This document shows, one piece after another, positions 24,094-62,691 of a DNA stretch of 64,000 nucleotides. A program made the position numbers and the translations under genes. Within the stretch, counting starts at the first letter, position 1. Each line of letters starts with the position of its first letter. Source of the DNA: Deltaproteobacteria bacterium HGW-Deltaproteobacteria-8 (GTDB taxonomy: Bacteria > Desulfobacterota > Desulfovibrionia > Desulfovibrionales > Desulfovibrionaceae). The stretch spans positions 1-64,000 of the forward strand of contig PHAR01000008.1 in the NCBI GenBank assembly GCA_002840405.1, in the 5' to 3' direction. A model generated the notes under the pieces. The model was not told the DNA's origin, searched no databases, and saw nothing but the letters and a program-made list of their open reading frames with translations.

Positions 24094-24094
24094 G

Positions 24095-25213: not shown

Positions 25214-25222
25214 TGCAGGCCC

Positions 25223-29163: not shown

Positions 29164-30591
29164 TCATCCTGTCTCCTTTCCTCTCTTAAACGGGGCCAAC
29201 CGCGCGCGGGGCTTTCGAGCGTCTGCGCTCGAAAACCCGCGCGCATTGCCGACGCCAGCCAAGCCTCCAGCCTCTTGCCCAGGCCCAGGCCAATGGGGTG
29301 TCCAGAGGGCCTCAGGCCCTCTGGCGGGGGCCGCGTCAGCCGTTATGTTGAGCGGTCTTCCGCGAATCTTACGGCTGTCGACAGCATCGATAGGGGCAGC
29401 GATGAAGCCGCCGCTCACGCAGAACAGTCCGGCGTGGCTCCAGCCAGCGGCCATGAGCGCGCCGCCGATGAATGGTCCGGCGAAGAAGCCCGCGTCCACG
29501 GCCACCATCATCAGGTTGGCGTTGTAGGCCCGCAGGTTTGGCGGCGAAACCTGAAGCATGCTGGAATTCAGGAGCGGCATGGACAGGGCGATGCCCGAGC
29601 CATAGAGCACGGCCATGCTGAAGAGCACCAGCGGTATGCCGGCCCAGCCGAAGAGCGGCACCAGCACGGCCAGTTCGAGGAAGGCGAAGAACAGCAGGCG
29701 GCCCTTGTCCACGCGGTCCAGCAGATGCCCGCAGGTGACGCGCAGGGTGATGGTGGCGGCGTTGGCGTAGGTGAAGAACATGCCGGGGTTGCCCGCGCCG
29801 AGGAGCACGGCGAAGTCGCGCATGAAGAAGAAGACGATGGAGTGCCCGGCCACCAGGAACAGGTTGGCCAGGATGAGCAGGAACACGGACGGGTCGCGGA
29901 GCCCCTGGCGCACTTCGACCCAGCTGGGCTTGAGCAGGTGCGAGGGGTGCAGGGTCAGGGCCAGGGCGCGGGTGCGCCGGCCGAGCGGCCGCAGCAGCAG
30001 GAAGGCCGGGAGCATGAGCGGCGCGGCCAGGGCGTAGGCTGCGCCGTGTCCGGGCAGGTAGGGCAGCACCAGCTCCACGAAGGGCGGCATGAGGGCATAG
30101 GGCAAGAGGATGGTCACGGAGAACAGGCCGAAGCCCTGGGCGCTTTTTTCGCGTGGGAGCAGCGCCGTGAGCACGCCCATGAGCCCGCCCACGAGAATGA
30201 CGAAGCCCATGCCGTGCAGCACGCGCACCAGCGCCAGCAGGAGGACGGACGTGGTGAAGGGGTAGCAGAGCAGGGCCACCGTGGCTAGGCACAGGCCCAC
30301 GCGCATGAAGCGCACGCTGTTGCCCAGCGTCAGGAACCGGCCCAGGAAGGGCCGCACCAGGAGCGCGGTGAAGGGCTCCAGGGCGAGCAGCGGCCCGCGC
30401 CAGGCCGGGGGGATGCCCAGCTCGGTCAGGTAGCTGTAGAAGCTGTAAAAGATGGCGATGTTGCAGAAGGCCAGCACGCTGATGGCGCAGAGGGACATAA
30501 ACTCGAAGGTCCAGATGCTCGGCGGATCCTGCGGCAGGCCTGAAGGTCCCGCGCCCGGTCCGGGAGCAGGCCTGGTGTTGCTCTGGTTCAT
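29164..30591 (-). CDS. MFS transporter with repeat-derived C-terminal tail
   Basis: 475 residues. About residues 1-397 are a 12-helix major facilitator protein (ALEPFTALLVRPFLGRFLTL loop, later GMFFTYANAATITLRVTCG). The final helix stops after GLFCVSGGFIAA and the frame then runs into a palindromic repeat block (29401 down to 29192), adding about 78 residues such as PIDAVDSRKIRGRPLNITAD that resemble nothing in the family. The same residues are encoded by an exact copy of the repeat at 49501-49572. The start overlaps the hisC-type gene stop (ATGA). Likely an exporter linked to the aminotransferase; whether it still folds is doubtful. Confidence 0.82.
   Translation of the reverse strand: MNQSNTRPAPGPGAGPSGLPQDPPSIWTFEFMSLCAISVLAFCNIAIFYSFYSYLTELGIPPAWRGPLLALEPFTALLVRPFLGRFLTLGNSVRFMRVGLCLATVALLCYPFTTSVLLLALVRVLHGMGFVILVGGLMGVLTALLPREKSAQGFGLFSVTILLPYALMPPFVELVLPYLPGHGAAYALAAPLMLPAFLLLRPLGRRTRALALTLHPSHLLKPSWVEVRQGLRDPSVFLLILANLFLVAGHSIVFFFMRDFAVLLGAGNPGMFFTYANAATITLRVTCGHLLDRVDKGRLLFFAFLELAVLVPLFGWAGIPLVLFSMAVLYGSGIALSMPLLNSSMLQVSPPNLRAYNANLMMVAVDAGFFAGPFIGGALMAAGWSHAGLFCVSGGFIAAPIDAVDSRKIRGRPLNITADAAPARGPEALWTPHWPGPGQEAGGLAGVGNARGFSSADARKPRARLAPFKRGKETG
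29192..29246. repeat. Long hairpin repeat B, first copy
   Basis: GGGGCCAACCGCGCGCGG leads into a hairpin in which GCGCGGG and TTTCGAGCG pair with CGCTCGAAA and CCCGCGC around TCTG. It is nearly identical to 49745-49801. It forms the last codons of the MFS frame. Confidence 0.85.
29290..29329. repeat. Palindromic repeat C, first copy
   Basis: CCAATGGGGTGTCC followed by the palindrome AGAGGGCCTCAGGCCCTCT; counterpart at 49853-49890, and a related block inside the SDR gene at 24842-24988. Confidence 0.75.
29330..29401 (-). repeat. Exact 72-bp repeat A, first copy (inside the MFS reading frame)
   Basis: Reverse complement of 49501-49572, identical at all 72 positions by eye. It contains the 12-bp palindrome GCTGTCGACAGC and nested inverted repeats CCGT...ACGG and GCGG-AAGA-CCGC. 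Confidence 0.95.
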
Positions 30592-31712
30592 GTCCGGGTA
30601 CCGGCCACGATGCCGAGGACCTCGCGCAGGGCCTGCAAAAACTCCTGCATCACCGGGAGCTGAACCATGCTCACGCGTATCCAGTTGGGGAAGCGGAAGC
30701 CGGTCATGGTGCGCACCATGATTCCCCGGCGCATCAGGTGGCGGTAAATGAGCGAGTCCGAGACCGGGGTCTCGACCATGACGAAGTTGCCCGCGTTCGA
30801 GACGTACTTCAGGCCCAGTTCGTCAAAGGCGGGCAGCAGCAGGGCCTTGGCCTCGGCCACCATCAGGCGCGTGGCGGCGATGTGCCCCGCGTCGTCCTTG
30901 AGGGCGGCTGCAGCTGCGGGCTGGCCCATGGAGTTGACCGAATAGACGATGTGCGTGCGCCGGATGTAGTCCACGACCTCTTTTTGCCCGCAGACGTAGC
31001 CCACGCGCAGGCCAGCGAGCGCGTACATCTTGGAGAAGGTGCGGAAGACCACCACGTTCTTGTGGCGCTCCATGAGCTCCATGCCGTCCGGAAAGCGCTC
31101 GTCGTCCACATACTCGCAGTACGCCTCGTCGATGACCACGATGGCCCGCCCGGCGACCCCGCGCAGGAAGCGCTCCATCACGTCGCGGTCCCACCACGTG
31201 CCTGTGGGGTTGTTGGGATTGCAGACGAACAGGATCTTGGTGCGCGAGTCCATGGCCGCGAGCATGGCGTCGGGATCGAAGGCCCAGTTGTTGAGCGGGA
31301 TCAGCCGGGCCTCGAAGCCCGAGAACTCGGCCACCCACTCGTACACGGCAAAGGTCTTGTCTGCGGTGATGATGTTGTCGCCCTTCTCGCAGAAAGCTTT
31401 TATGACGCTGGCGATGACCTCGCAGGAGCCGTTGCCCACCAGGAAGCGCTCCGGGTCCTTGCCGAAGCGCTCGGAGAGCGCGGTGCGCAGGGTGTAGCAG
31501 TCGCCGCTGGGGTAGATGGCCGAGCGCCGCGACTCGAAGGCCTCGATGACAGCGCGCGCGTTGGGTGGCGGCCCCAGGGCGTTCTCGTTGTTGTTCAGGC
31601 GGTGCAGGTGGTCCACCCCATACTGGCGCATGAGGTCCGGGTCCGGGCGGCTCGGCGTGTAGGCTTCAAAGGCCCGGATGTGCTCCGGGACGAGCTCAGC
31701 TATGGACGGCAT
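30588..31712 (-). CDS. hisC: Histidinol-phosphate aminotransferase family protein
   Basis: 374 residues. HisC-type PLP enzyme with LNNNENALGPPPNA near the start, GNGSCEVIASVIKAF, VCNPNNPTGTWW, VIDEAYCEYV and the Schiff-base Lys in FRTFSKMYALAGLRVGY (near residue 230). It converts imidazole-acetol phosphate and glutamate to histidinol phosphate, or acts on an aromatic or other amino acid in related enzymes. It sits between an unknown protein (17-base overlap) and an MFS transporter (4-base overlap), not with other his genes. A specialised role, such as making or exporting an amino-acid derivative, is therefore as likely as histidine synthesis. Confidence 0.87.
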   Translation of the reverse strand: MPSIAELVPEHIRAFEAYTPSRPDPDLMRQYGVDHLHRLNNNENALGPPPNARAVIEAFESRRSAIYPSGDCYTLRTALSERFGKDPERFLVGNGSCEVIASVIKAFCEKGDNIITADKTFAVYEWVAEFSGFEARLIPLNNWAFDPDAMLAAMDSRTKILFVCNPNNPTGTWWDRDVMERFLRGVAGRAIVVIDEAYCEYVDDERFPDGMELMERHKNVVVFRTFSKMYALAGLRVGYVCGQKEVVDYIRRTHIVYSVNSMGQPAAAAALKDDAGHIAATRLMVAEAKALLLPAFDELGLKYVSNAGNFVMVETPVSDSLIYRHLMRRGIMVRTMTGFRFPNWIRVSMVQLPVMQEFLQALREVLGIVAGTRT

Positions 31713-49500: not shown

Positions 49501-49572
49501 CGCTGCCCCTATCGATGCTGTCGACAGCCGTAAGATTCGCGGAAGACCGCTCAACATAACGGCTGACGCGGC
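49501..49572 (+). repeat. Exact 72-bp repeat A, second copy (intergenic)
   Basis: Identical to the reverse complement of 29330-29401. Starts 40 bases after the kinase stop. Contains GCTGTCGACAGC and the nested CCGT...ACGG arms. Confidence 0.95.
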
Positions 49573-49910: not shown

Positions 49911-50795
49911 CTACTCCAGCATGGCCAGGCGCAGGAGCAGGTTGCCGGCCACTTCGCGGCGGTAGTCGGCGCTGGCGCGGACGTCGCTGATGGGCTGGAC
50001 CTGCGCGCGCACCAGGGCGGCGGCTTCGGCCAGGGCGGTGAGGGACAGCTTGCGTCCGACCAGGGCGGCCTCGGCCTCGGGGCAGCGCCAGATGGTGGGC
50101 GCCACGGAGCCCCAGGCCAGGCGCGCCTCGGCGACTTTTCCGCCGTGCCCCAGGCGCACCAGGGCGGCCAGGCTGACCACGGCCACAGCCAGGGCGTCGC
50201 GGCGTCCGACCTTCTCGAAATGCTGGCGGACGTTCACGCCAGGGACAGGCACGCGCACGGCGGTGAGGATTTCAGCGGGCTGAAGGGCGGCGCGTCCCGG
50301 CCCGAGGAGGAATTCCGCCAGAGGCAGGCGCCGGGTTCCGGCTGTGGAGGCCAGCTCCACCTCTGCGCCCAGCGCCAGCAGCGGCGGCAGGGTGTCGCCA
50401 GCGGGCGAGGCTGTGCAGAGGTTGCCGCCCAGGGTCCCCATGTTGCGGATGGGCGGCGAGCCCAGGTCGGCCAGGGCCTGGGCCAGAACGGGCAGCCGCG
50501 CGCGGACGAGGGGATGCGCCAGAAGCTCCGCGTGGGTGCAGGCCGCGCCCAGGCGCAGGACACGGTGCAGGGTCCCCGGCCCAACCCCCGTGGCCGCGCC
50601 TTTGTTGCCTGCGCCGGAGTCTTCGGCAACGCCGCGCAGGGCCGCCAGCCGGTCCAGGCTGACCAGCGTGCATGAGAGATCCGGTTTCGAGCGCAGGCGC
50701 ACCAGCAGATCCGTGCCGCCAGCCAGCACGCGCGCGCCGGGTTCGGCCAGGGCCTTGAACAGCTGCTTCAGGTCGCGCGGGAAGAGCACGTTCAT
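49911..50795 (-). CDS. Molybdenum hydroxylase FAD subunit (xanthine dehydrogenase / CoxM family)
   Basis: 294 residues. FAD-binding subunit with the dinucleotide sites ARVLAGGTDLLVRLRSKPDL (about 21-40) and IRNMGTLGGNLCTASPAGDT (about 115-134). It passes electrons from the iron-sulfur subunit to an acceptor. Its length fits CoxM-type subunits and leaves no room for the extra 4Fe-4S loop of 4-hydroxybenzoyl-CoA reductase HcrB. Overlaps the iron-sulfur gene by 4 bases. Last gene of the six-gene operon. Confidence 0.92.
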   Translation of the reverse strand: MNVLFPRDLKQLFKALAEPGARVLAGGTDLLVRLRSKPDLSCTLVSLDRLAALRGVAEDSGAGNKGAATGVGPGTLHRVLRLGAACTHAELLAHPLVRARLPVLAQALADLGSPPIRNMGTLGGNLCTASPAGDTLPPLLALGAEVELASTAGTRRLPLAEFLLGPGRAALQPAEILTAVRVPVPGVNVRQHFEKVGRRDALAVAVVSLAALVRLGHGGKVAEARLAWGSVAPTIWRCPEAEAALVGRKLSLTALAEAAALVRAQVQPISDVRASADYRREVAGNLLLRLAMLE

Positions 50796-51307
50796 GGCTG
50801 GCCCTCCTCGCCGGGCGCTTCGCCGTCCGGGACCTCACAGCTTGGCGCGTCGCCCAGCTCCCTGGCTGCGGCGCACACGGCGTCCACGATCTTCACGTAG
50901 CCCGTGCAGCGGCAGAGGTTGCCCGAAAGGCCCCGGCGCACCTCGTCGCGCGTGGGGTCCGGGTTTTGGGCCAAAAGCGCGCTCGCGGCAATGGTCATGC
51001 CCGGCGTGCAAAAGCCGCACTGCACGGCCCCATGCTCGGCAAAGGCCCGCTGGAGGGGATGCGGCGCGGCCTGGCTGCCCAGGCCCGCGGCGGTGGTCAG
51101 CTCGCGGCCGCTGAGCTGCGCGACGAGCAGCAGGCACGAGAGCTTGTGCACGCCGTCCACCAGGATGGAGCAGGCCCCGCACTCGCCGGTGCCGCAGCCC
51201 TCCTTCACGTCCAGCGCGTTCAGCTCGCGCAGCAGGTCCACGGCGCGCTGGTCCGGGTCAGCGTCCACGCGCACCAGGGCGCCATTCAGGGTGAAGGAAA
51301 GCTTCAT
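50792..51307 (-). CDS. Molybdenum hydroxylase [2Fe-2S] subunit
   Basis: 171 residues. Two iron-sulfur clusters: CGTGECGACSILVDG with the upstream Cys (plant-type, about 39-58) and CGFCTPGM plus LCRCTGYVKIVDAV (helical domain, about 97-145). All eight Cys are present, as in CoxS/HcrC/XdhA small subunits. Overlaps both neighbouring genes by 4 bases, so the three subunits are tightly coupled. Confidence 0.94.
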   Translation of the reverse strand: MKLSFTLNGALVRVDADPDQRAVDLLRELNALDVKEGCGTGECGACSILVDGVHKLSCLLLVAQLSGRELTTAAGLGSQAAPHPLQRAFAEHGAVQCGFCTPGMTIAASALLAQNPDPTRDEVRRGLSGNLCRCTGYVKIVDAVCAAARELGDAPSCEVPDGEAPGEEGQP

Positions 51308-53616
51308 GCGCGCCTCCGGCTGGGCGTCTTGCGTTTTTTGAGGGCCGCCAGCACCCGCTCCGGGGTCAGCGGAAAATCGCGCAGGCGCTCGCCCAGGGCA
51401 TCCTCCAGGGCCGAGGCCAGGGCCGGGGCCGGGCCGTTCAGGCCGACCTCGCCCACGCCCTTGAGCCCGCGCGGGCCGGTGGGCTCGTCTCCGTCCACGG
51501 CCAGGGATTCGATATCCGGCAGGTCAAGCGCCGTGGGGATCAGGCAGGTGGACAGATCACGGGTCAGGATGAGGCCGCCGCGCACCTGGAAGTCCTCGGT
51601 GAGGGCATAGCCGATGCCCTGGGCCACGCCACCCTGGGCCTGCTGATCGAAGCAGGAGCGGTCCAGCACGCGCCCGCCGTCGGTGATGGCGACGTAATCG
51701 CACACGCGCACGCGCCCCGTGAGCTCATCCACCTCGATGCGCGCCAGGTGCGCGGCGTAGGCGAAGAACAGGTGCGGGAAGCCGATCTGGAAGCCGCGCC
51801 CGGTGTCCGGCGGGTTCTGGGCCACGGGCATGAGGAACTCGGCCACGCTGATCCGGTCGTCGCGCGGGAGGAAGCGCGCCAGGACGCCGAGCGGCATGAC
51901 CCGGCCCGAGGGCGTGTGGCGCACCCCGCCGGGGATGAGCTCCATGGCCTCCCAATCGTCCACATAGAGCGGCATGGCCGCGCGGGCCTGCAGCTTCTCG
52001 CGCATGGCGGCGCAGGCGCGCAAGAGCGCGTTGCCAAAGGTGTAGGTGGTGCGCCCTGCGCTGGAAGAGCCCGAGGGGTGGCAGCGCTCGGTGTCGGGCT
52101 GGACGAGGCGGATGGCCCCGGCCTCCTGATTGAGCTCCTGCGCGGCCAGGGTGGCGAAAGCCGCGGCATTGCCCTGGCCCATGTCGGCCACGCCGCTGTA
52201 GACCAGAAAGTCACCTGCCTCGGTCAGCTCCACCTTGGCGATGGCCATGTCCGGCAGGCCCCGGCCATAGCCCATGCCGTTGAACACGGCCGCCAGGCCC
52301 ACGCCCCGGCGGGTGAAGGCCGGAGCGGCCTCGCGCCAGGCTGCGCGCCCGGTCCAGAGCGGGTGCGCGGCCAGCCCGTCCAGACACTCGGCCAGGTGCA
52401 CGGAGCTGGTGAGCGCGACGCCCGAGCCGTTCTCGTCGCCCGGCAACAGCGCGTTCTTGCGCCGCAGCTCCAGCGGGTCCAGGCAGAGTTTTGCCGCCAG
52501 GGCGTCCATGAGGCCCTCGAAGGCCGGGCTGACCTGGGCCACGCCAAAGCCCCGGAAGGCTCCGGCGATGGGGTTGTTGGTGTACACGCAGCGGCCCTCG
52601 ATGAGCGTGTGCGGCACGCGGTAGGGCCCGGCCGCGTGCTCCATGCCCAGCTCCATGACCTCGCTGCCCAGGTGCGCGTAAGCCCCGGTGTCGTAGACCA
52701 GGCGGCAGGAGAACGCCAAAAGCGTGCCGTCCGTGCCCGCGCCCAGGGTGTAGCGCAGACGCACGGCGTGGCGCTTGTACCCGGCCAGGATGCTCTCCTC
52801 GCGGTCCCAGGCCATGCGCACCGGGCGGCCCCCGGCCTTGAGCGCGGCGAGCGCCAGCAGGCACTGCACCGTGGCCCCGTCCTTGCCGCCGAAGCCTCCG
52901 CCCAGGTAGGGCGCGCGGATGTGGACCTTGAGCGGGTCCAGACCCAGGGCGTGACCGATCTCGAAGCGGTCGCGGAACGGGGCCTGGGTGCTTACGGTCA
53001 TGTCCAGGGTGCCGTCCGGCAGCAGCTGGGCGAAGCCGCACTGGGTCTCCAGAAAGGCGTGCTCCTGCATGGGGGTGGAAAACTCGCCGCGCACGATGAC
53101 CGGCGCGTTCTTCAGGGCAGCGCGGGCGTCGCCTTTTTCGATGACCGCGCGCAGGAGCAGGTTGCCGTCCTTGCGGCCCCCGTGAACGAGCGGCGCACCC
53201 TTTTTCAGCGCATCCTCGGGGTCGAACACGCCCGGCAGGGGCTCGATGTCCGCGCGCAAGGACGCCAGCCCCTGGCGCAGGGCCTCGGCGGACTCGGCCA
53301 GGACCAGGGCCACGGGGTCACCCGCATGGCGGATGACCTCGCCGCAGAGCACGGGCTGGTCCTTGTGCACGATGCCCTGGAGGTTCGCGCCAGGCACGTC
53401 CGCAGCTGTGAGCACGCACAGCACGCCCGGCACGGCCAGGGCTGCGCTGGGGTCAACCCCGCGCACCCGGCCATGGGCGATGTTCAGCGTCGTTCCGGGG
53501 CGATAGGCTCCGGCAAAGAGGCAGTCCGCAGGCGCGAGGTCAAGGGCAAAGCGCTCCGCGCCCGTGGCCTTGGCCAGGGCATCGGCCCGCAATCTGGGCG
53601 GGGAACTGGTATGCAT
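51304..53616 (-). CDS. Molybdenum hydroxylase molybdopterin-binding subunit (xanthine dehydrogenase family)
   Basis: About 770 residues. The large catalytic subunit binds the molybdopterin cofactor: YLGGGFGGKDGATVQCLLAL, IAGAFRGFGVAQVSPAF, and near the end GLKGVGEVGLNGPAPALASA with the likely catalytic Glu. The substrate is unknown; family members hydroxylate purines, aldehydes, nicotinate or remove a ring hydroxyl from 4-hydroxybenzoyl-CoA. The start at 53616 is chosen for its AGGAG site; 53643 (ATG) and 53670 (GTG with AAGGAG 11 bases away) are alternatives. Overlaps the small-subunit gene by 4 bases and lies close behind the GNAT-like gene. Confidence 0.93.
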   Translation of the reverse strand: MHTSSPPRLRADALAKATGAERFALDLAPADCLFAGAYRPGTTLNIAHGRVRGVDPSAALAVPGVLCVLTAADVPGANLQGIVHKDQPVLCGEVIRHAGDPVALVLAESAEALRQGLASLRADIEPLPGVFDPEDALKKGAPLVHGGRKDGNLLLRAVIEKGDARAALKNAPVIVRGEFSTPMQEHAFLETQCGFAQLLPDGTLDMTVSTQAPFRDRFEIGHALGLDPLKVHIRAPYLGGGFGGKDGATVQCLLALAALKAGGRPVRMAWDREESILAGYKRHAVRLRYTLGAGTDGTLLAFSCRLVYDTGAYAHLGSEVMELGMEHAAGPYRVPHTLIEGRCVYTNNPIAGAFRGFGVAQVSPAFEGLMDALAAKLCLDPLELRRKNALLPGDENGSGVALTSSVHLAECLDGLAAHPLWTGRAAWREAAPAFTRRGVGLAAVFNGMGYGRGLPDMAIAKVELTEAGDFLVYSGVADMGQGNAAAFATLAAQELNQEAGAIRLVQPDTERCHPSGSSSAGRTTYTFGNALLRACAAMREKLQARAAMPLYVDDWEAMELIPGGVRHTPSGRVMPLGVLARFLPRDDRISVAEFLMPVAQNPPDTGRGFQIGFPHLFFAYAAHLARIEVDELTGRVRVCDYVAITDGGRVLDRSCFDQQAQGGVAQGIGYALTEDFQVRGGLILTRDLSTCLIPTALDLPDIESLAVDGDEPTGPRGLKGVGEVGLNGPAPALASALEDALGERLRDFPLTPERVLAALKKRKTPSRRRA

Positions 53617-53685
53617 GGGTCTCCTGGCCTTTGCGGCAGGCATGGTGTTGACCTGAGGTGTCGCGGTCACAACGCGGACGGCTCC

Positions 53686-54795
53686 TTATGCCTGCCCGGC
53701 CAGCACGCCCACGGGCGCGCCAAATTCGCGCCCGGCGCGCTCCATGTCCGCCCGCGCCATGCGCACGACAGCGGCCCCGGCCTCGCTCTGGGTCAGGATG
53801 GGCGCAAGGGCCACGGGCCGAAGAAAGCGCTGCACCAGCAAGGCATCCGGGCCTTGGCCTGCGGAGCCGAACCAGAGTGGCGCGAAACCTCCGAAAAAGC
53901 ACCCGGCCTGGCGCAGGACCTCGGCCGCAAAGCCGGCGGACGGCGACCCCAGGGGCAGGTAGAACTGGATCAGGTCGTGGCCCAGCTCCCCGGACTCGCG
54001 GATCTCCTGGGCCGCGCGCTCGGCAAACTGCGCGCCCACCTCGGCCACATTGCAGCGCGTGACCCCGGCAAAGGAGAACTGCTGCACGGCCATGTCCGTC
54101 ACCGCGTCCTCGGCCGGAGCATGCCCTGCCGCGCCCTGCTTGAGGCTGCGCTTGAGCGGCCAGGAGGGCAGGATGGAGCGCACCTGGGCGTCCCAGCATT
54201 CCGGCACGAAGAGGTCGCCCTGGCGGTCGTGGTCCACACGCACATGCAAAAGACAGCTCACCCGGCCCGCAACGCCCTCGCCCGCGTACACCACCTCAGG
54301 CATGAGGCCGACCTCCAGGCCGCACTCAAAAAAGTCGCAGTTGCGGGACATCTTCTGGGTCACCAGGTGGTGGCACACGGCCTCGCCGAACAGGGCGTCC
54401 ACGTTGGGGAGCTTCCCGAACATGTGCTGCTCCGCGAACTTGTGCAGGCGAAAGGCCGCGAAGGAGTTGCGGTAGGCCTTGTCCACCAGGATCTGGCCGT
54501 ATTCGTACATGCGCCGGTTGGGCGGGGAGCTTTGGTAGATGCCCGCCTGGCCCACCACGGAGCCGTCCGCCGCGCGTGCCACAATGGTGTGGATGCGCCC
54601 GCTCTGGTTGGCCTCGCTCAGGAGTTCCGGCACGTAGGGATCGTCCACGGGGTAGTCCTCCCCGTAGATCTGAAAGAACAGGCGGCCCACGCCGGGCGCG
54701 TCCTCGGGACGGAAGGCGCCGGCCTGGACCTTCTGGCCCGGCACGAGGTCATGGGCGCTGGCTCGCAGCGCGGCGATGGCCTCGGCCCGCGTCAT
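53686..54795 (-). CDS. GNAT-like acyltransferase of the adenylation/carrier-protein operon
   Basis: 369 residues. The first half looks like a GNAT acetyltransferase: FRPEDAPGVGRLFFQIYGED, IVARAADGSVVGQAGIYQ and the acyl-CoA-type region ILVDKAYRNSFAAFRLHKFA (about 105-125). The second half (about 165-369) is less clear and may be a second, degenerate GNAT-like domain. Immediately downstream of, and overlapping by 4 bases, the carrier protein gene. It could move an acyl group to or from the carrier. Specific chemistry is an inference. Confidence 0.72.
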   Translation of the reverse strand: MTRAEAIAALRASAHDLVPGQKVQAGAFRPEDAPGVGRLFFQIYGEDYPVDDPYVPELLSEANQSGRIHTIVARAADGSVVGQAGIYQSSPPNRRMYEYGQILVDKAYRNSFAAFRLHKFAEQHMFGKLPNVDALFGEAVCHHLVTQKMSRNCDFFECGLEVGLMPEVVYAGEGVAGRVSCLLHVRVDHDRQGDLFVPECWDAQVRSILPSWPLKRSLKQGAAGHAPAEDAVTDMAVQQFSFAGVTRCNVAEVGAQFAERAAQEIRESGELGHDLIQFYLPLGSPSAGFAAEVLRQAGCFFGGFAPLWFGSAGQGPDALLVQRFLRPVALAPILTQSEAGAAVVRMARADMERAGREFGAPVGVLAGQA

Positions 54796-55037
54796 GGTTT
54801 GCCCCCGATGCGGTTGATGTGGGCGGCAAAGTCGTCGAGGGTGCGCAGCTTGAGCGCGGAGGCATCGTCCAGGCTCAGGCTGAAGCGCTCCTCCACCAGG
54901 GCGCAGAAGGCCGGAAAGTCCACGGAGTCCAGCCCCTGCTTGAGCAGCGGACCCGCCGGGTCCAGAGCGCGCACCACCTCGGGCTTCACCCCGATATCTT
55001 CCAGCATCGCCTTGAGTTCCAATCCGGTGACGGCCAT
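54792..55037 (-). CDS. Acyl/aryl carrier protein
   Basis: 81 residues. A phosphopantetheine carrier protein: KQGLDSVDFPAFCALVEERF carries the serine attachment site in the DSVDF block (Ser about 44), within the usual four-helix pattern. AAGGAGG is 5 bases before ATG 55037. It sits between the adenylating enzyme (26-base gap) and the GNAT-like gene (4-base overlap), so it probably carries the acid activated by the former. This is a dedicated carrier, not the fatty-acid AcpP type, judging by sequence. Confidence 0.9.
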   Translation of the reverse strand: MAVTGLELKAMLEDIGVKPEVVRALDPAGPLLKQGLDSVDFPAFCALVEERFSLSLDDASALKLRTLDDFAAHINRIGGKP

Positions 55038-55063
55038 GCCATCCTCCTTGTTGCTCAAACAGC

Positions 55064-56584
55064 CTACACGCTACGCAGGCGGAAGCGTTGGACCTTGCCC
55101 GTAGGGGTCTTGGGCAACTCGTTATGAAATTCCACGCGCACCGGGCACATGTACAGAGGCAGCAGCCCGCGCGCGAGCCGGACGATCTCCACGCCCAGCC
55201 GGGTCCGGTCCTGGCCGGGGTCCTTCAACACCACGTGGGCGCAGGGCCGCACCAGCCCCTCCACACGCAGCCCGGCCACGGCGCATTCGGCCACGGCGGG
55301 GTGCTGGCGCAGGGCGTTCTCCACCTGCACGGGCGAGACCCAGTGCGCGCCCACCTTGAGCATGTCGTCGCTGCGGCCCTGGTGCGTGTACACGCCGTGC
55401 TCGCGCACGTAGACGTCGCCCGTGGCCAGCCAGCCGCCTGCCAGCATGGTCTCGGCGGTCTTCTCCGGCCGGTTCCAGTAGGCCCTGCACAGTCCCGGCC
55501 CCCGGATGAGCAGGTTGCCGGGCGTTGCGTCCGGGACCTCCGGACTTTTGCCCTCGCCGCCGTCCGCGACCAGGCGTGCCTCGAACCCGGGCACGACCTC
55601 GCCGCTGGTTCCGCAGCGCACGCGGCCCTGGCGATTGGACACGAACAGGTTGAAGGCCTCGGTGGAGCCGATGCCGTCCAGGATCTCCACGCCCGTCTGA
55701 CGCAGCCACTCCTGGCACAGGCTGGCGGGCAGGGCCTCGCCTGCGGAATAGCACAGCCGCAAGCTGGACAGGTCGCAGTCCGGAGTGCCGGGCTCGAAGG
55801 CGCGCAGCATGAGGCTGTACAGGGTGGGCACGCAGAAGAACAGGCTGGCCCGGTGCCGGGCAATGACCTCAAACAGCTCGTAGGGGCCGGGCTTGCCCGG
55901 GAAGAGCACGCCCGTGGCCCCGAAAAACAGCGGCAGGGTAAGGCTGCTCATGAGCCCGTAGGCAAAGGACATTTTGCTGGCCGAGAAGAGCACGTCGTCC
56001 GCCGTGACGCCCAGGATTTCCGAGCCCCAGGGCGCAGCCGGGCCGAGCAGGTCGAGGGCCGCGTGGGGCACACCCTTGGGGCGGCCCGTGGAGCCGGAGC
56101 TGTAGAGCATGAAGCCCGGCGCGTCCTCCGGCTGGAGCACGGGCTCGAACTCCGTGGAATGGGCGGACAGGCCCCAGGGGCCATCCAGGGCGCAGAACAG
56201 CACCACGCCTGTTTCCGGCACGCCCCGCGCACCCTCGGCCGCGGGCGAGTCCTCCCAGGTGATCAGGGCCGTGGCCGCGCAGTCGGCCAGGATGAAGGCG
56301 TAGTCCTCCGGCGCGAGCATGGCGCTGACAGGCACGGGCACGGCGCCCAGGAGCATGGCCCCGAGAAAGGCCTTGGGGTAGGCGAAGCTGTCGGGCAGCA
56401 CCAGCGCCACGCGGTCGCCGGGGCCGACGCCGCGCGCTCGCAGCAGGTTGGCGAAGCGGGCCGAGTCTGCGGCCAGGGCGCGATGGGTCAGGGTGTCGTC
56501 GCCGCAGAGAAAGGCGGCCTTGTCCGGGCAGCGCGCAAGATTGACGGCCAGCAGGCGCGCGGCAACGTTTTCGGGCTGGGGCAT
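55064..56584 (-). CDS. Acid-CoA/carrier-protein ligase (ANL superfamily, benzoate-CoA ligase-like)
   Basis: 506 residues. AMP-forming ligase with FMLYSSGSTGRPKGVPHAAL (phosphate loop, about 157-176), GIGSTEAFNLFVSN (core motif), WLATGDVYVREHGVYTHQGR (hinge Asp) and the C-terminal PKTPTGKVQRFRLR with the catalytic Lys. It resembles benzoate-CoA ligases of anaerobic bacteria. The next gene being a carrier protein suggests it may load a carrier rather than CoA, or both. First gene of the operon; divergent from the rhs island. Confidence 0.9.
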   Translation of the reverse strand: MPQPENVAARLLAVNLARCPDKAAFLCGDDTLTHRALAADSARFANLLRARGVGPGDRVALVLPDSFAYPKAFLGAMLLGAVPVPVSAMLAPEDYAFILADCAATALITWEDSPAAEGARGVPETGVVLFCALDGPWGLSAHSTEFEPVLQPEDAPGFMLYSSGSTGRPKGVPHAALDLLGPAAPWGSEILGVTADDVLFSASKMSFAYGLMSSLTLPLFFGATGVLFPGKPGPYELFEVIARHRASLFFCVPTLYSLMLRAFEPGTPDCDLSSLRLCYSAGEALPASLCQEWLRQTGVEILDGIGSTEAFNLFVSNRQGRVRCGTSGEVVPGFEARLVADGGEGKSPEVPDATPGNLLIRGPGLCRAYWNRPEKTAETMLAGGWLATGDVYVREHGVYTHQGRSDDMLKVGAHWVSPVQVENALRQHPAVAECAVAGLRVEGLVRPCAHVVLKDPGQDRTRLGVEIVRLARGLLPLYMCPVRVEFHNELPKTPTGKVQRFRLRSV

Positions 56585-56749
56585 GGCTGATCTCCTGTGG
56601 CGAGAGGTGGCGCGAAAGCATGTCTGGAGTCAGTCTGGTGGATAGCAGACCAGGGCGGCGGGGGTCAACGCCGGGCGGGTGCGGTTCTGCCTCGCAAAAC
56701 CTGTCAACAGGGTATTCTTGTCCTTTTTCCGGCCAAAAACAGGGCAATT

Positions 56750-58511: not shown

Positions 58512-58601
58512 AGGACTGACGCCGACACCGGGCGCTTCACGGCGTTCGACCCGCTGGACAGGAAGGGCGGGGATAGCGACGGGGACGGTTACTGCGTTGC
58601 C
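58512..58601 (+). pseudogene. Second Rhs core remnant
   Basis: About 30 codons reading RTDADTGRFTAFDPLDRKGG, then DSDGDGYCVA, matching the core end in the gene at 57541 (DADTGRFTALDPL). It has no start, no toxin tail and lies directly after the candidate immunity gene. This is the usual scar of an orphan rhs-tail cassette displaced by recombination. Confidence 0.82.
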
Positions 58602-58662
58602 GCCGTGCGCCCCGCCCGGCCTCGCACCTGGACACTTTGCGGCCTTCAAGCTAAAGAGAACC

Positions 58663-59688
58663 ATGGCAAAACACATGCCCCGCGCGTTGCGCCTCGCAAC
58701 ACTCCTGCTCCTCACCCTCTGCTTGAGCCTCCCGGCCCGGGCCGCGGACCTCAAACACGCCGCCCTGGCCCTGCAATGGCAGCCCCAGGCCCAGTTCGCC
58801 GGGTTTTACGTGGCCCAGGAAAAGGGGTTCTATCAGCAGGCCGGGGTGGACATGAAGATCATCCCCGGCGGGCCGGACGTGGTGGCCTCCAAGCTCCTGG
58901 CCGAGGGCCGCGCCCAGTTCGCCACCATGTTCCTGGCCACGGGCATCGAGCGCCGCTCGGGCCAAGGCCAGGGGGGGGGCATGGACGGCCTGCCCGTGGT
59001 GCTGCTGGCCCAGCTGGTGCAGCGCTCGGCGCTGATGATCATCACCCGCGCCGACTCGCCCATCAAGAGCCCAAAAGACCTGGACGGCAAGCGCGTGGGC
59101 CTGTGGGACAACGAGTTCCGCCTGCAGCCCCTGGCGCTGTTCCAGCGCCTGGGCATCCACCCGGTGATCATCCCCCAGTCGGGCACCCTGAATCTGTTCC
59201 TGCGCGGCGGGGTCGATGCCGCCTCGGCCATGTGGTACAACGAGTACCACAGCCTGCTGGCCTCGGGCCTGGACCCGGAGGACCTGCGCGTGTTCTTCTA
59301 CCGCGACCTTGACCTGAACTTCCCCGAGGACGGCCTGTACGCCCTGGAGGACACGCTTGCGCGCGACCCGGACCTCTGCCGGGCCGTGACCGCCGCCAGC
59401 CTGCGCGGCTGGGAGTATGCCTTCGCCCACCCAAACGAGGCCCTGGACATCGTGCAGAACCGCATGCGCGAGGCGCACCTGCCCTCCAGCCGCGCCCACC
59501 AGCGCTTCATGCTGGCGCGCATGCAGGACGTCATGAGCGGGGCAGCCCCGGACAGTCTGCCCCTGGGCAGCCTGGACCCGGCAGACTTTGAGCGCGTGGC
59601 CGAAGCGCTTCTCGCGCAAAAGCTCATCCACACGCGGCCCAGCCTGGAGGCCTTTTTCCGGGGCCAACTCCGGGGAGCGGGCCAATGA
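58663..59688 (+). CDS. NMT1/THI5-like periplasmic substrate-binding protein
   Basis: 341 residues. Signal peptide (RLATLLLLTLCLSLPARA, cleavage near ARA at about 27), then ALQWQPQAQFAGFYVAQEKG, the typical start of NMT1/ThiY-like receptors for aromatic or pyrimidine-like ligands. Later DLDGKRVGLWDNEFR and AASAMWYNEYHSLL. ABC receptors normally neighbour permease genes; here the next gene is a sensor phosphatase overlapping by 4 bases, so this protein may feed a signal rather than a transporter. A run of nine G occurs inside the gene (58971-58979, GQGGGMD). Confidence 0.9.
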   Translation: MAKHMPRALRLATLLLLTLCLSLPARAADLKHAALALQWQPQAQFAGFYVAQEKGFYQQAGVDMKIIPGGPDVVASKLLAEGRAQFATMFLATGIERRSGQGQGGGMDGLPVVLLAQLVQRSALMIITRADSPIKSPKDLDGKRVGLWDNEFRLQPLALFQRLGIHPVIIPQSGTLNLFLRGGVDAASAMWYNEYHSLLASGLDPEDLRVFFYRDLDLNFPEDGLYALEDTLARDPDLCRAVTAASLRGWEYAFAHPNEALDIVQNRMREAHLPSSRAHQRFMLARMQDVMSGAAPDSLPLGSLDPADFERVAEALLAQKLIHTRPSLEAFFRGQLRGAGQ

Positions 59689-59746
59689 GCGGGCCAACGA
59701 GCGAACCAATGAGTGAACCAACGGGCGGACCAATGAACGAGCCGCA
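59675..59746 (+). repeat. 12-bp tandem repeat across a gene junction, six units
   Basis: Units: GAGCGGGCCAAT, GAGCGGGCCAAC, GAGCGAACCAAT, GAGTGAACCAAC, GGGCGGACCAAT, GAACGAGCCGCA. The first unit contains the end of the binding-protein gene, with the ATGA overlap at the first boundary. The others encode the N-terminus of the phosphatase as SGPT/SEPM-type 4-residue repeats. Confidence 0.9.
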
Positions 59747-61811
59747 ATGCGCAACAGCCAACGGCCAAAAACCGGGCGGCATCCGCACCGGGCACGGCAT
59801 CGCCTTCCGGCTCTCGGCCCTGGTGCTCTCCGTGGTGGGCGTGATCTTCGTGGCCATGAGCGGCGCGACGTACTTTCTGGCCCGCGAGGCCCTGCTGAAA
59901 AACGCCGAGCAGAGCGCCCGCACCCAGGCCCAGGCCCTGGTGCAGCGCATCGAGACCCGGCTCGCGCCCATCAGCCGCGTGGCCCAGGGCCTGGGCTACG
60001 ACCTGGAGGACGGCCTGCTCGACGATGCGGGCATCCTGCGCCGCCAGCGCCAGGCGCTTCTGGACAACCCGGAGATCTTCGGCACGGCCGCCGCCTTTGA
60101 GCCCTTCGGCCGCCACCCGGACCAGGAATACTTCGCGCCCTACACCTTCCGCGCGCCGCTCGGCATCACGCACATCGGCCTGGGCGGAGCGGTCTACCGC
60201 TACCACGCCATGGACTGGTACCAGATCCCGCGCCAGCTGAAACAGATCGTCTGGAGCGAGCCTTACTTCGACGAGGGCGGCGGCAACACCCTCATGGCCA
60301 CCTGCTCGGTGCCCTTCTACCAGGGCGAGGGCGACGCGCGACGCGTGGCCGGGGTGACCACGGCGGACGTATCGCTCGACTGGCTCAAGCGCCTGGTGGC
60401 CTCGGTGCAGGTGCTGGACACGGGCTACGCCTGGCTCATCACCAGAAACGGCACCTACGTGACCCACCCGGCCCCGGGCGTGGCCTTCAACGAGACCATC
60501 TTCAGCCGGGCCGAGGAGAACCACGACCCGGACCTGCGGCGCATCGGCCAGGACATGATCCGCGGCGGCTCCAAGCTGGTGCAGCTGAAGAGCCTGCACA
60601 CGGGCAAGCCGGGCTTTTTGGTGTACGCGCCCCTGCCCAGCACCGGCTGGTCGCTGGGCGTGTTCTCCCCGCGCGACGAACTTCTGGCCGACGTGAACCG
60701 CCTGGCCCTGGTGAGCGCGGGCCTGGGCGGTGGCGGCTTCCTGCTTCTGGCGGCCCTGGTGCCCATCATCGCCCGGGGCATCACCAAACCGCTACGCCGC
60801 CTGTGCGGGGCCGCGCGCGAGGTGGCAGGCGGGCATCTGGACGCCGCCCTGCCCGAGGTCAAGAGCCGCGACGAGGTCCATGACCTGGCCAGCGCCTTCG
60901 CCAACATGCAGACCTCCCTCAAGGAGCACATCCGCGACCTCACCGCGGCCACGGCCACCCGCGAGCGCATCCAGAGCGAGCTGCGCATCGCCAGCGAGAT
61001 CCAGCTGGGCATCCTGCCCAAGACCTTTCCGCCCCTGCCCAGGCGCAACGAGTTCGACCTCTTCGCCAGCCTGACCCCGGCCCGCGAGGTCGGCGGCGAC
61101 TTCTACGACTTCTTCCACTGCGGCCAGGACTGCTTCTGCTTCCTTATCGGCGACGTGTCCGGCAAGGGCGTGCCCGCAGCCTTCTACATGGCCGTGGCGC
61201 GCACGCTCATCAAGGCCGTGGCCGAGTCCGTGGCCGGCGCCGGCCAGCGGCGCGGGGCCGACCCGGCGGGCACTCACCAGCGGCGCATCCCCGACCCCGG
61301 CCGCATCCTCGCGCGCGCCAATGAGGGCCTGTCCCAGGACAACGACTCCTGCATGTTCGTCACCGTGTTCTGCGCGGTGCTCGACTTCGCCACCGGCGAG
61401 GTGCGCTACGCCAGCGCCGGGCACAACCCGCCCGTGCTGCTGCGCGCAGGGGCCGCGCCCGAATACCTTCCCACCCACGGCGATCCCGTGGCCGGGGCCA
61501 TGCCCGGCGTCGTCTTCAGCACAGACACCCTGCGCCTGCACCCCGGCGACGCGCTTGTGCTCTACACCGACGGCGTCACCGAGGCCATGAACCCGGCCCA
61601 GGAGCTGTATGGCGAGGAGAGGCTGGCCAACCGGCTGGCATCGCTGATGGACCAGGACGTGCGCACGACCTGCGAAGTCCTGGCCCAGGATGTCCACGCC
61701 TTTGCCAGCGGGGCCGAACAGTCCGACGACATCACCATGCTGGTGCTGCGCTACAACGGCTCCGGCCCGGAAGGCGCCGAAGCCGGTGAGACCACCCCTG
61801 ATGAAAGCTGA
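59685..61811 (+). CDS. Membrane sensor with SpoIIE-type PP2C phosphatase
   Basis: 708 residues. The N-terminus is made of 4-residue repeats (59685-59746). Then: membrane helix (about 42-65), periplasmic Cache domain (about 70-330; YRYHAMDWYQIPRQLKQIVW, NTLMATCSVPFY, GVTTADVSLDWL), second helix (about 348-370), HAMP (about 372-425) and a SpoIIE phosphatase with ARDEVGG-like AREVGGDFYDFF, IGDVSGKGVPAAFYMAVART and QSDDITMLVLRY. It should dephosphorylate the STAS protein at 61845. An unusual insert, GQRRGADPAGTHQRRIPDPG, interrupts the phosphatase near residue 525. Overlaps the binding-protein gene (ATGA). Confidence 0.92.
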   Translation: MSGPTSEPMSEPTGGPMNEPQCATANGQKPGGIRTGHGIAFRLSALVLSVVGVIFVAMSGATYFLAREALLKNAEQSARTQAQALVQRIETRLAPISRVAQGLGYDLEDGLLDDAGILRRQRQALLDNPEIFGTAAAFEPFGRHPDQEYFAPYTFRAPLGITHIGLGGAVYRYHAMDWYQIPRQLKQIVWSEPYFDEGGGNTLMATCSVPFYQGEGDARRVAGVTTADVSLDWLKRLVASVQVLDTGYAWLITRNGTYVTHPAPGVAFNETIFSRAEENHDPDLRRIGQDMIRGGSKLVQLKSLHTGKPGFLVYAPLPSTGWSLGVFSPRDELLADVNRLALVSAGLGGGGFLLLAALVPIIARGITKPLRRLCGAAREVAGGHLDAALPEVKSRDEVHDLASAFANMQTSLKEHIRDLTAATATRERIQSELRIASEIQLGILPKTFPPLPRRNEFDLFASLTPAREVGGDFYDFFHCGQDCFCFLIGDVSGKGVPAAFYMAVARTLIKAVAESVAGAGQRRGADPAGTHQRRIPDPGRILARANEGLSQDNDSCMFVTVFCAVLDFATGEVRYASAGHNPPVLLRAGAAPEYLPTHGDPVAGAMPGVVFSTDTLRLHPGDALVLYTDGVTEAMNPAQELYGEERLANRLASLMDQDVRTTCEVLAQDVHAFASGAEQSDDITMLVLRYNGSGPEGAEAGETTPDES

Positions 61812-61844
61812 AAACACGCGAGCCAAGGCCCGCAGGAGGACATC

Positions 61845-62177
61845 ATGAACTGTACAGGAAGCAAACAGGGCGCGTTCTACGTGCTCGAGGTCACCGGTCG
61901 CATGGACGCCCTCACCTCCCAGGGCTTCGAGACCGAGTGCCAGGGCCGCCTGGAGGCCGGGGACACGCGCATCGTGGCCGACCTGGGCGGGCTCGAGTAC
62001 ATCAGCAGCGCGGGCCTGCGCAGCATCCTCTCCGCAGCCAAGAAGCTCAAGGCTGCGGGCGGCGACCTGGCCTTCTGCGGCTTGACCGGCATCGTGGCCG
62101 AGGTCTTCACCGTATCCGGTTTCGCCAAGCTCCTGCCGGTGTTCGCCACGCGTGACGAGGCCCTGGCCCGGAGCTAG
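61845..62177 (+). CDS. STAS-domain anti-sigma factor antagonist
   Basis: 110 residues. SpoIIAA/RsbV-type protein: VADLGGLEYISSAGLRSILS (about 44-63) holds the phosphorylatable Ser in ISSAGL. It binds the partner kinase/anti-sigma protein at 62191 when unphosphorylated. AGGAGG precedes the ATG. It lies 33 bases after the phosphatase gene and 13 before the ATPase gene, completing a partner-switch. Confidence 0.93.
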   Translation: MNCTGSKQGAFYVLEVTGRMDALTSQGFETECQGRLEAGDTRIVADLGGLEYISSAGLRSILSAAKKLKAAGGDLAFCGLTGIVAEVFTVSGFAKLLPVFATRDEALARS

Positions 62178-62190
62178 AGAGATCCGCCCC

Positions 62191-62691
62191 ATGGACAGCC
62201 ACGCCACTGGCCCACCCGCTGACACCGCCTGCGGCGTGTCCCCGGACGCCCTGGCCGATGCCCTGCGCCTGCCCGCGCACCAGGAGAGCCTGCCGCCCCT
62301 GCGCGATCTGGCCCTGGCCTGGGCCGCGCGCGCCGGGCTGGCGGACGAGTCCGTGCAGCGCCTGGACCTGGTGCTGGAGGAGATGCTCATGAACGTCTTC
62401 CACCACGCCTACCCCGGCGAGCTGGGCGACGTGGAGCTGGCCCTGCTTTCCTCAAGGCAGGGCGATCCGCCGGGGCAGCTCAGCCTGAGCATCACGGACT
62501 GGGGCGTGGCCTTTGACCCGCTGGCCCCGGCAGACCACGACCTCGAGGCCGACCTTGAGGCCAACCTCGAAGCCGGGCTGGACGAACGCGCACCCGGCGG
62601 CATGGGCCTGTTCCTCCTGCGCACCCTGGCCAAGGCCTCCTACGCCCGCCAGGGCCAGGCCAATGTCCTGAGCCTCACCTTCGGCCCCTGA
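62191..62691 (+). CDS. RsbW-type ATPase (anti-sigma factor / Ser kinase)
   Basis: 166 residues. HATPase of the RsbW/SpoIIAB group, with LDLVLEEMLMNVFHHAYPG (N box), SITDWGVAFDPLA (G1 box) and RAPGGMGLFLLRTLA (G2 box). Just before G2, an acidic ADLEANLEAGLDE-type spacer is inserted. It should phosphorylate the STAS protein upstream, and sequester a target, perhaps a sigma factor not found in this window. Last gene of the four-gene operon. Confidence 0.9.
   Translation: MDSHATGPPADTACGVSPDALADALRLPAHQESLPPLRDLALAWAARAGLADESVQRLDLVLEEMLMNVFHHAYPGELGDVELALLSSRQGDPPGQLSLSITDWGVAFDPLAPADHDLEADLEANLEAGLDERAPGGMGLFLLRTLAKASYARQGQANVLSLTFGP

What the first reader, a model, noticed from the sequence alone, without database searches (positions are those of the whole stretch)
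49911..56584. Six-gene operon joining an adenylating ligase, a carrier protein, a GNAT-like protein and a molybdenum hydroxylase
Seen: six leftward genes, four of the five junctions overlapping or within 30 bases, encode an ANL ligase, an 81-residue carrier protein, a GNAT-like protein and the catalytic, 2Fe-2S and FAD subunits of a xanthine-dehydrogenase-family enzyme. Known: molybdenum hydroxylases act on free or CoA-bound substrates (e.g. 4-hydroxybenzoyl-CoA reductase). Inference: here the substrate acid may be activated and held on a dedicated carrier protein while hydroxylated or dehydroxylated, and the GNAT-like protein then loads or unloads it. I do not recognise this combination as a described pathway. 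The FAD subunit lacks room for the HcrB-type 4Fe-4S loop, so it is not a standard 4-hydroxybenzoyl-CoA reductase.
Basis: partly seen in the sequence, partly recalled or inferred. Interest (0 to 1): 0.78.

Follow-up and report, generated by a model that had tools for sequence, protein, structure and literature searches.

The report
Carrier-protein acyl-transfer cluster with molybdenum hydroxylase
A sulfate-reducing bacterium carries a probably undescribed biosynthesis-and-export gene cluster in which an activated aromatic-type acid seems to be held on a small carrier protein and passed to an amine by an unusual transferase, alongside a molybdenum enzyme that relatives keep even after they lose the carrier.

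Summary
The six genes are real, at the stated coordinates, but only part of the system. A second operon 17 kb away in the window (MFS transporter, HisC-like aminotransferase, degenerate GHKL-ATPase/GNAT-like protein) sits beside the six in relatives; in the window an inferred 20-kb inversion between identical 72-bp inverted repeats parted them. The core (GNAT, three-subunit molybdenum hydroxylase, aminotransferase, HATPase-GNAT, MFS) recurs in the window's genus and class, in a MAG titled Deltaproteobacteria and in the order of Thiocystis. Ligase and carrier are a plug-in: over 82 GNAT loci I read, both present in 34, neither in 47, ligase alone in 1. On the hydroxylase tree the module changed at least 8 times, ligase and carrier together. 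Carrier and GNAT are fused in 8 loci, all with ligase; 88 of 92 GNATs lack the CoA-loop glycine. This supports ligase -> carrier -> GNAT transfer. Substrate and product are unknown; relatives fused to 4-coumarate-CoA-ligase- and phenylalanine-ammonia-lyase-like domains point to aryl acids. Eight paper searches listed no description.

The parts
55064..56584 (-). adenylating ligase, benzoate-CoA ligase family (LIG)
   Evidence: PF00501/PF13193, TIGR02262 over cut-off; closest solved relatives benzoate-CoA and anthranilate-CoA ligases
54792..55037 (-). 81-aa acyl/aryl carrier protein, candidate phosphopantetheine Ser38
   Evidence: PF00550 E 1.5e-6; DS motif kept in the ligase-bearing loci aligned
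53686..54795 (-). GNAT-like acyltransferase (two-part; N-terminal half a GNAT fold, canonical CoA P-loop Gly replaced by Phe112)
   Evidence: PF00583; model pLDDT 94; PDB matches Z ~13; column counts
51304..53670 (-). molybdenum hydroxylase catalytic subunit; start may be a later ATG near 53616
   Evidence: PF02738, PF20256, PF01315; below the cut-off of each of the 13 NCBIfam models matched
50792..51307 (-). 2 x [2Fe-2S] subunit
   Evidence: PF00111, PF01799
49911..50795 (-). FAD subunit, no 4Fe-4S loop
   Evidence: PF00941, PF03450
31696..33063 (-). HATP: degenerate GHKL/RsbW-like N-terminus plus C-terminal part resembling the GNAT-like protein's second half
   Evidence: PF13581 E 1.1e-4, under cut-off; hhalign to GNAT profile E 7e-4, probability 26%; beside the six genes in relatives
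30588..31712 (-). HisC-like class I/II aminotransferase
   Evidence: PF00155; TIGR01141 280.2 bits, cut-off 276.55; the genome has a second, better hisC match on C5
29164..30591 (-). MFS transporter; its last ~20 residues are replaced by repeat-encoded sequence
   Evidence: PF07690; tail compared with L032
29330..29401 (+). inverted repeat copy 1 (72 bp, 100% identical to 49501-49572), inside the MFS 3' end; one end of the inferred 20-kb inversion
   Evidence: blastn of window on itself
49501..49572 (-). inverted repeat copy 2, about 340 bases beyond the FAD gene's 3' end
58597..62691 (+). associated regulatory module: NMT1/THI5-like binding protein (58597-59688), dCache-HAMP-SpoIIE phosphatase (59733-61811), STAS (61845-62177), RsbW-like kinase (62152-62691)
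   Evidence: Pfam; similar genes, matched by similarity or by eye, beside the cluster in L032, L037-L041 and L060

Best explanation
The six genes are part of a nine-gene small-molecule biosynthesis and export cluster. (1) The benzoate-CoA-ligase-family enzyme adenylates an acid, probably a small aromatic acid, and loads it on Ser38-phosphopantetheine of the carrier. (2) The GNAT-like protein, which has lost the usual CoA pyrophosphate loop, takes the acyl group from the carrier and transfers it to an amine, making an amide. (3) The amine-bearing or core scaffold is made with the HisC-like aminotransferase and oxidised by the three-subunit molybdenum hydroxylase as a free or already acylated small molecule, not necessarily on the carrier. 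(4) The MFS protein exports the product; the HATPase-GNAT protein is a second transferase or regulator; the neighbouring binding-protein/SpoIIE/STAS/RsbW module probably controls expression. Shown by sequence: gene content, conservation, joint loss, fusions, lost loop. Inferred: every chemical step, substrate and product.
For: Ligase and carrier occur together: 34 both, 47 neither, 1 ligase only, of 82 loci with a GNAT homologue. On the hydroxylase tree ligase and carrier serine change together: 8 independent pairs on starred branches, 7-8 the same way, 0 opposite, sign test p 0.008-0.016; aminotransferase, HATP and MFS do not follow the ligase, though too few pairs differ there for the test to reach 0.05. 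Nine ligase-less loci of three genera keep an eroded carrier domain or a stump in front of the GNAT, the DS motif gone from the GNAT frame (in L053 a truncated out-of-frame fragment still shows it). Carrier and GNAT share one reading frame in 8 loci (L042, L046, L048, L050, L051, L140, L141, L145), all with a ligase; in 26 loci they are separate. CoA-loop Gly absent in 88 of 92 GNATs. In L063 a 4-coumarate-CoA-ligase-like domain (TIGR02372 E 1e-82), a GNAT domain and an ammonia-lyase domain (TIGR01226 E 1.1e-114; both under cut-off) are one protein; same order in L126-L129. Hydroxylase loci: MFS in 42, aminotransferase in 37, HATP in 35 of 46. Own genome: one match each for MoCoBD_1, XdhC_CoxI and ACPS. 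Precedent for adenylating enzyme + carrier + GNAT transfer: SbzB/SbzC and SbzL/SbzI with SbzG/K, and FeeM (PMC6331615, passages).
Against: No substrate, product or activity is known. The CoA loop is also missing in GNATs of clusters without carrier, so the loss cannot be explained by the carrier alone. It was not shown that the one phosphopantetheinyl-transferase domain found (129-aa open frame) loads this carrier. L059 has ligase and GNAT but no carrier was found. Eight independent pairs is a small number, the tree is a quick one (SH-aLRT only), and I chose the loci from hit lists, so the counts are not frequencies. HATP's GNAT kinship rests on a weak profile score (probability 26%). MFS direction (export) is assumed. 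In the window the MFS C-terminus is altered, so the pathway may be impaired in this strain.
Confidence: 0.5

Rival explanations
1. One reading: the acid is activated, held on the carrier and hydroxylated or dehydroxylated there by the molybdenum enzyme; GNAT loads or unloads it.
For: Tight operon with 4-nt overlaps; 24 of 35 ligase loci have the hydroxylase beside them; the best solved match of the Mo subunit is 4-hydroxybenzoyl-CoA reductase, which uses a thioester (substrate recalled). In Thiocystis minor the ligase-carrier-GNAT genes run into a benzoyl-CoA-reductase-C-like gene (TIGR02263 E 7.5e-76, under cut-off), another thioester enzyme.
Against: 22 of 46 hydroxylase loci have no ligase; the hydroxylase tree interleaves both kinds with at least 8 changes on starred branches; 8 of 9 tested ligase-less genomes have no such ligase at E <= 1e-60; L033, a close relative, has ligase-carrier-GNAT-MFS-AT-HATP with no hydroxylase between (an 87% complete MAG). 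All three HBCR equivalog cut-offs missed.
Confidence: 0.17
2. A catabolic route for an aromatic acid: the ligase makes an aryl-CoA, the hydroxylase is a divergent 4-hydroxybenzoyl-CoA-reductase-type enzyme, and MFS imports the acid; the carrier is incidental.
For: Ligase in the benzoate-CoA ligase family; hydroxylase nearest to HBCR among solved structures by sequence; own genome has one HGD-D match.
Against: Ligase and carrier serine are lost together; FAD subunit lacks the 4Fe-4S loop; aminotransferase, GNATs and HATP do not fit ring degradation; 22 of 46 hydroxylase loci have no ligase. The single HGD-D hit was not examined further.
Confidence: 0.12
3. The GNAT and HATPase-GNAT proteins act on proteins (lysine or N-terminal acylation, or partner-switch signalling), and the cluster makes an intracellular signal rather than an exported metabolite.
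For: HATP N-terminus resembles HATPase_c_2, under cut-off; SpoIIE/STAS/RsbW genes lie next to the cluster in several relatives; many weaker GNAT hits are ~500-aa frames, and the one I read, L045:9970-11460, looks HATPase-like at its N-terminus by eye.
Against: HATP seems to lack the usual GHKL Asn/Gly motifs (by eye; motifs recalled); MFS is in 42 of 46 hydroxylase loci; aminotransferase and hydroxylase suggest small-molecule chemistry.
Confidence: 0.1

Closest known systems
SbzL-SbzG/K-SbzI and SbzB-SbzG/K-SbzC of altemicidin/SB-203208 biosynthesis (PMC6331615, passages seen)
   Same: free-standing adenylating enzyme, free-standing carrier and a GNAT enzyme that takes the acyl group from the carrier; for SbzC, CoA in place of the carrier gave no product
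   Different: no molybdenum hydroxylase is named in the passages I saw; the ligase here is of the benzoate-CoA ligase family; carrier-GNAT fusions and the aminotransferase/HATP/MFS core are features of the loci here; transfer is not shown here
FeeM N-acyl amino acid synthase (named in PMC6331615; further details recalled)
   Same: GNAT-family enzyme fed by an acylated carrier
   Different: long-chain acyl donor (recalled); the window's GNAT matched only PF00583 in Pfam and nothing in NCBIfam
4-hydroxybenzoyl-CoA reductase HcrABC with aryl-CoA ligase
   Same: three-subunit xanthine-dehydrogenase-family enzyme encoded with an aryl-acid ligase
   Different: bit scores far under all three equivalog cut-offs, no 4Fe-4S loop, extra carrier, GNAT and aminotransferase
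Tyrosine ammonia-lyase plus 4-coumarate-CoA ligase pair of flexirubin synthesis, FlxA/FlxY (PMC3992019, passages seen)
   Different: here both are fused to a GNAT-like domain; the window cluster has neither

Membership tests
benzoate-CoA ligase family (TIGR02262) | score over curated subfamily cut-off | tested here: met
   415.4 bits vs 375.25
benzoate-CoA ligase family (TIGR02262) | makes an aryl-CoA thioester | not testable with these tools
   needs enzyme assay; joint loss with the carrier argues for carrier loading
4-hydroxybenzoyl-CoA reductase | alpha, beta, gamma equivalog cut-offs (TIGR03194/03195/03193) | tested here: not met
   365 vs 994.55; 114.4 vs 404.55; 155.4 vs 257.8 bits
4-hydroxybenzoyl-CoA reductase | 4Fe-4S loop in the FAD subunit | tested here: not met
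   294-aa subunit without insertion or Cys cluster, read from sequence; loop layout recalled
xanthine dehydrogenase (PucD, XdhA equivalogs) | equivalog cut-off for the Mo subunit | tested here: not met
   510.5 vs 783.65 and 411.5 vs 780 bits
molybdenum hydroxylase superfamily | MoCoBD_1/2, Fer2/Fer2_2, FAD_binding_5/CO_deh_flav_C subunits | tested here: met
   all over Pfam cut-offs
adenylating enzyme-carrier-GNAT acyl-transfer module (Sbz type) | adenylating enzyme, free-standing carrier with Ser, GNAT-fold protein encoded together | tested here: met
adenylating enzyme-carrier-GNAT acyl-transfer module (Sbz type) | GNAT takes acyl from holo-carrier onto an amine or alcohol | not testable with these tools
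   fusions, joint loss and lost CoA loop are indirect support
GNAT superfamily | GNAT fold | tested here: met
   Z 13.3, rmsd 2.8, 155 aligned, N-terminal part; PF00583 just over cut-off
GNAT superfamily | CoA loop Q/R-x-x-G-x-G/A (recalled) | tested here: not met
   R109-N-S-F-A-A in the window; Gly at that column in 4 of 92. Carrier-fed GNATs are a known exception to CoA use, so this does not remove it from the superfamily
histidinol-phosphate transaminase HisC (TIGR01141) | equivalog cut-off | tested here: met
   280.2 vs 276.55 bits, marginal; another locus of the genome scores 335 bits, so this is likely a paralogue

The most novel reading that the evidence does not exclude
In the ligase-bearing clusters a molybdenum hydroxylase works on an aryl group while it is held on a dedicated carrier protein, and the same core can be fed by interchangeable activation units (ligase+carrier; 4-coumarate-ligase-GNAT-ammonia-lyase fusion; benzoyl-CoA-reductase-like unit). 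This would be a carrier-based, oxygen-independent aryl-oxidising assembly line of anaerobes whose GNATs no longer use CoA.
Probability: 0.18. Interest if true: 0.82.

Novelty: new variant of a known kind. Interest (0 to 1): 0.56.

Why it matters
It shows a recurring biosynthetic cluster type in sulfate reducers and some other bacteria, built on GNAT transfer rather than condensation domains, with a swappable acid-activation module. It gives a clear genetic handle (ligase and carrier lost together, hydroxylase kept) to find out which step each enzyme does, and it may lead to an unknown exported aryl amide of anaerobes. It also tests whether GNAT enzymes have repeatedly left CoA for carrier-bound donors.

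Tried and rejected
Photoactive-yellow-protein link (suggested by the 4-coumarate-CoA ligase/ammonia-lyase fusion): TIGR02373 has a match at E <= 0.001 in 6 of 11 genomes but over its cut-off in 0 of 11; only Thiocystis minor gave a strong sub-threshold domain (E 4.8e-37), inside a 1128-aa open frame. Rejected as a general explanation.

Defence system: no PADLOC match at E <= 0.001 for any of nine proteins. Rejected.

Standard aromatic degradation operon, HBCR or xanthine dehydrogenase: see membership rows.

Sequence search of PDB with the GNAT-like protein found nothing better than E 0.97. VIA rows test mainly residues 20-243; the C-terminal part was not searched alone. Rank 50, a histidine acetyltransferase (9emp), aligned over 392 columns but with rmsd 14.6; not used.

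Limits and weak rows. From 84 regions, L084 (same genome as L042) and L154 (10 bases) were left out, giving 82 loci from 68 genomes; the 46 hydroxylase loci lie in 46 genomes, the 35 ligase loci in 30. The loci were chosen by me from cut hit lists, not drawn at random. Several are cut by contig ends (for example L033, L043, L056, L059, L082). Two have only weak GNAT scores (L139, L155). Of the 11 ligase loci without hydroxylase, 5 (L057, L058, L059, L066, L156) lie in genomes that have another locus with the hydroxylase. L053 was flagged as ligase-less with a DS motif; one search showed a truncated out-of-frame fragment. G317 is the exception: its cluster has an eroded carrier and no ligase, but two ligase homologues lie on other contigs; G215, counted among the eight, is 84% complete. 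L059 has a ligase and a GNAT but no carrier was found. The 4 of 92 GNATs with the loop glycine (L069, L121, L149, L159) are all in loci without ligase.

Papers: searches listed no description of this gene set (two returned no paper; 67 asked only for the genus name; otherwise I saw titles and starts of abstracts). Only open-access PMC papers are held. PMC6331615 and PMC3992019: passages only.
Full report
WHAT IS THERE. Pfam and NCBIfam give: a benzoate-CoA-ligase-family enzyme (TIGR02262, over cut-off), an 81-aa carrier with LLKQGLDSVDF, a protein that just passes the GNAT cut-off, and the Mo, 2Fe-2S and FAD subunits of a molybdenum hydroxylase; the Mo subunit misses the cut-off of all 13 NCBIfam models it matched. 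Host: G223 is in the window's genus, and its contig of 45536 bases has the length of the contig of Humidesulfovibrio sp. Ess09-03 that one search found, so I place the window in Humidesulfovibrio. The GNAT-like protein models well (pLDDT 94) and its N-terminal part is a GNAT fold (Z 13.3, rmsd 2.8, 155 aligned residues, model 22-188, for 1yr0).

IT IS BIGGER THAN SIX GENES. A simple coding-bias gene caller shows a second minus-strand operon in the window: HATP (31696-33063), a HisC-like aminotransferase (30588-31712) and an MFS transporter (29164-30591). In relatives (for example L035, L036, L037, L038, L041, L042) these three genes converge directly on the six. In L081, from a MAG titled Deltaproteobacteria bacterium, all nine genes are on one strand, followed by XdhC and MobA-like genes. 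In the window the two operons are 17 kb apart and point the same way. A 72-bp, 100% identical inverted repeat pair (29330-29401 and 49572-49501) lies at the 3' ends of the two operons, inside the MFS end and about 340 bases beyond the FAD gene, so I infer an inversion of about 20 kb. The last ~20 residues of the MFS protein, as judged against L032, are replaced by repeat-encoded sequence. A third module beside the ligase (binding protein, SpoIIE-type phosphatase, STAS, RsbW; 58597-62691) is also found beside the cluster in L032, L037-L041 and L060.

SPREAD. GNAT homologues occur in 110 of 348 genomes of the class (E <= 1e-5), in 14 of 195 genomes drawn from the order of Thiocystis (E <= 1e-20; three of them below 1e-100) and in 10 of 29 genomes of the class of L081's genome. 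Many of the weaker hits are ~500-aa frames; the one I read (L045:9970-11460) looks HATPase-like at its N-terminus by eye. I read the surroundings of 82 loci from 68 genomes (84 regions less one duplicate genome and one 10-base stretch), chosen from the hit lists. Of these, 46 have the hydroxylase; MFS is in 42, the aminotransferase in 37 and HATP in 35 of the 46. This is the core. L120, from a genome in the order of Thiocystis, has the whole set.

THE LIGASE AND CARRIER ARE A PLUG-IN. Ligase and carrier: both in 34, neither in 47, ligase alone in 1 (L059) of 82 loci. Hydroxylase without ligase: 22 of 46. Ligase without hydroxylase in the stretch read: 11 of 35; 5 of these 11 are extra copies in genomes with another locus that has the hydroxylase, several others lie at contig ends. 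L033, a close relative of the window, has the other six genes and no hydroxylase between MFS and GNAT (an 87% complete genome). On a tree of 45 hydroxylase Mo subunits the ligase+carrier label needs 11 changes, at least 8 on starred branches (quick tree, SH-aLRT support only). Eight independent pairs differ in ligase; the carrier serine goes the same way in 7-8, the opposite way in none (p 0.008-0.016). Aminotransferase, HATP and MFS show no such link, though few pairs differ in them. Nine ligase-less loci of three genera still carry an eroded carrier domain or a stump in front of the GNAT (L044, L045, L052, L053, L055, L142, L143, L144, L147). Of nine genomes whose hydroxylase cluster lacks the ligase (loci L040, L044, L045, L053, L055, L142, L143, L144, L147), eight have no ligase homologue at E <= 1e-60 anywhere in the assembly (one of the eight is 84% complete); the ninth, G317, has two on other contigs. 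All nine positive genomes in the same search have it.

WHAT THIS SAYS ABOUT MECHANISM. Joint loss ties the ligase to the carrier's phosphopantetheine. Carrier and GNAT share one reading frame in 8 loci, all with ligase; in 26 they are separate genes. That ties the carrier to the GNAT. The usual CoA loop is broken (Gly missing in 88 of 92), as expected if the donor is not CoA, but this is also true where no carrier is present. In L063 a GNAT domain is fused between a 4-coumarate-CoA-ligase-like domain (TIGR02372, E 1e-82) and an ammonia-lyase domain nearest to phenylalanine ammonia-lyase (TIGR01226, E 1.1e-114), both under their cut-offs, with the motif ASGD and an RFL stretch at the selectivity site (reading of these residues recalled); L126-L129 have the same order. 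So the acyl group handled by this GNAT family is likely a small aryl acid. In Thiocystis minor the ligase-carrier-GNAT genes run, overlapping, into a benzoyl-CoA-reductase-C-like gene. The adenylating enzyme-carrier-GNAT arrangement is known to work in SB-203208 biosynthesis, where CoA could not replace the carrier for SbzC (PMC6331615, passages). I therefore read LIG -> carrier -> GNAT -> amine as the likely chemistry and place the hydroxylase on the core scaffold, since it survives repeated loss of the carrier. That the hydroxylase acts on a carrier-bound group in the ligase-bearing clusters is not excluded.

OWN GENOME. One match each for MoCoBD_1 (this enzyme), XdhC_CoxI, ACPS (phosphopantetheinyl transferase) and HGD-D, and two aminotransferases over the hisC cut-off. 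The XdhC maturation factor thus seems kept for this one enzyme (inference).

NOVELTY. Eight paper searches listed no description of this gene set; only open-access papers are held and I saw titles and starts of abstracts, so this is not proof. Each part is a known kind; the combination, the plug-in behaviour and the fusions look new. I rate it a new variant of a known kind.

Noticed in passing
window 29330-29401 / 49501-49572; 29192-29325 / 49745-49888: Inverted 72-bp identical repeats at the ends of an apparent ~20-kb inversion; a second, direct repeat pair (79% over 144 columns) lies beside them. The MFS gene's 3' end is replaced by repeat-encoded sequence.
   Followed up: partly
L063:8698-12666, L126-L129: 1322-1377-aa frames joining a 4-coumarate-CoA-ligase-like domain, a GNAT-like domain and an ammonia-lyase domain, beside other GNAT copies in L063 and L126-L129 and, in L126-L128, the same hydroxylase.
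   Followed up: partly
L083:3668-12468 (Thiocystis minor): GNAT, ligase, carrier and GNAT followed by a benzoyl-CoA-reductase subunit C-like gene whose C-terminal part gives an HGD-D match in another frame (L083:11863-12468), so the gene may be broken; XdhC and MobA-like genes on the other strand and transposase-like genes (by eye) around.
   Followed up: partly
L057, L058, L065, L066: Ligase-carrier-GNAT triplets without a hydroxylase; the genomes of L057, L058 and L066 also carry the six-gene set (L035, L041, L034).
   Followed up: partly
window 56679-58002 (+): RHS-repeat-like reading frames (by eye) directly upstream of the ligase, apparently in pieces; described only. A direct repeat (80.7% over 83 columns; 57561-57641 and 58517-58597) lies within and after them.
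   Followed up: no
L081:20258-21007: A fragment resembling 4-hydroxybutyryl-CoA dehydratase-type enzymes (recalled, not scanned) beyond the nine-gene cluster.
   Followed up: no
window 21814-26233: Genes that look like nonulosonic (sialic-type) sugar synthesis: a nucleotidyltransferase/CBS-like protein, a UDP-GlcNAc 2-epimerase-like protein and two sugar epimerase-like proteins (by eye, not scanned).
   Followed up: no
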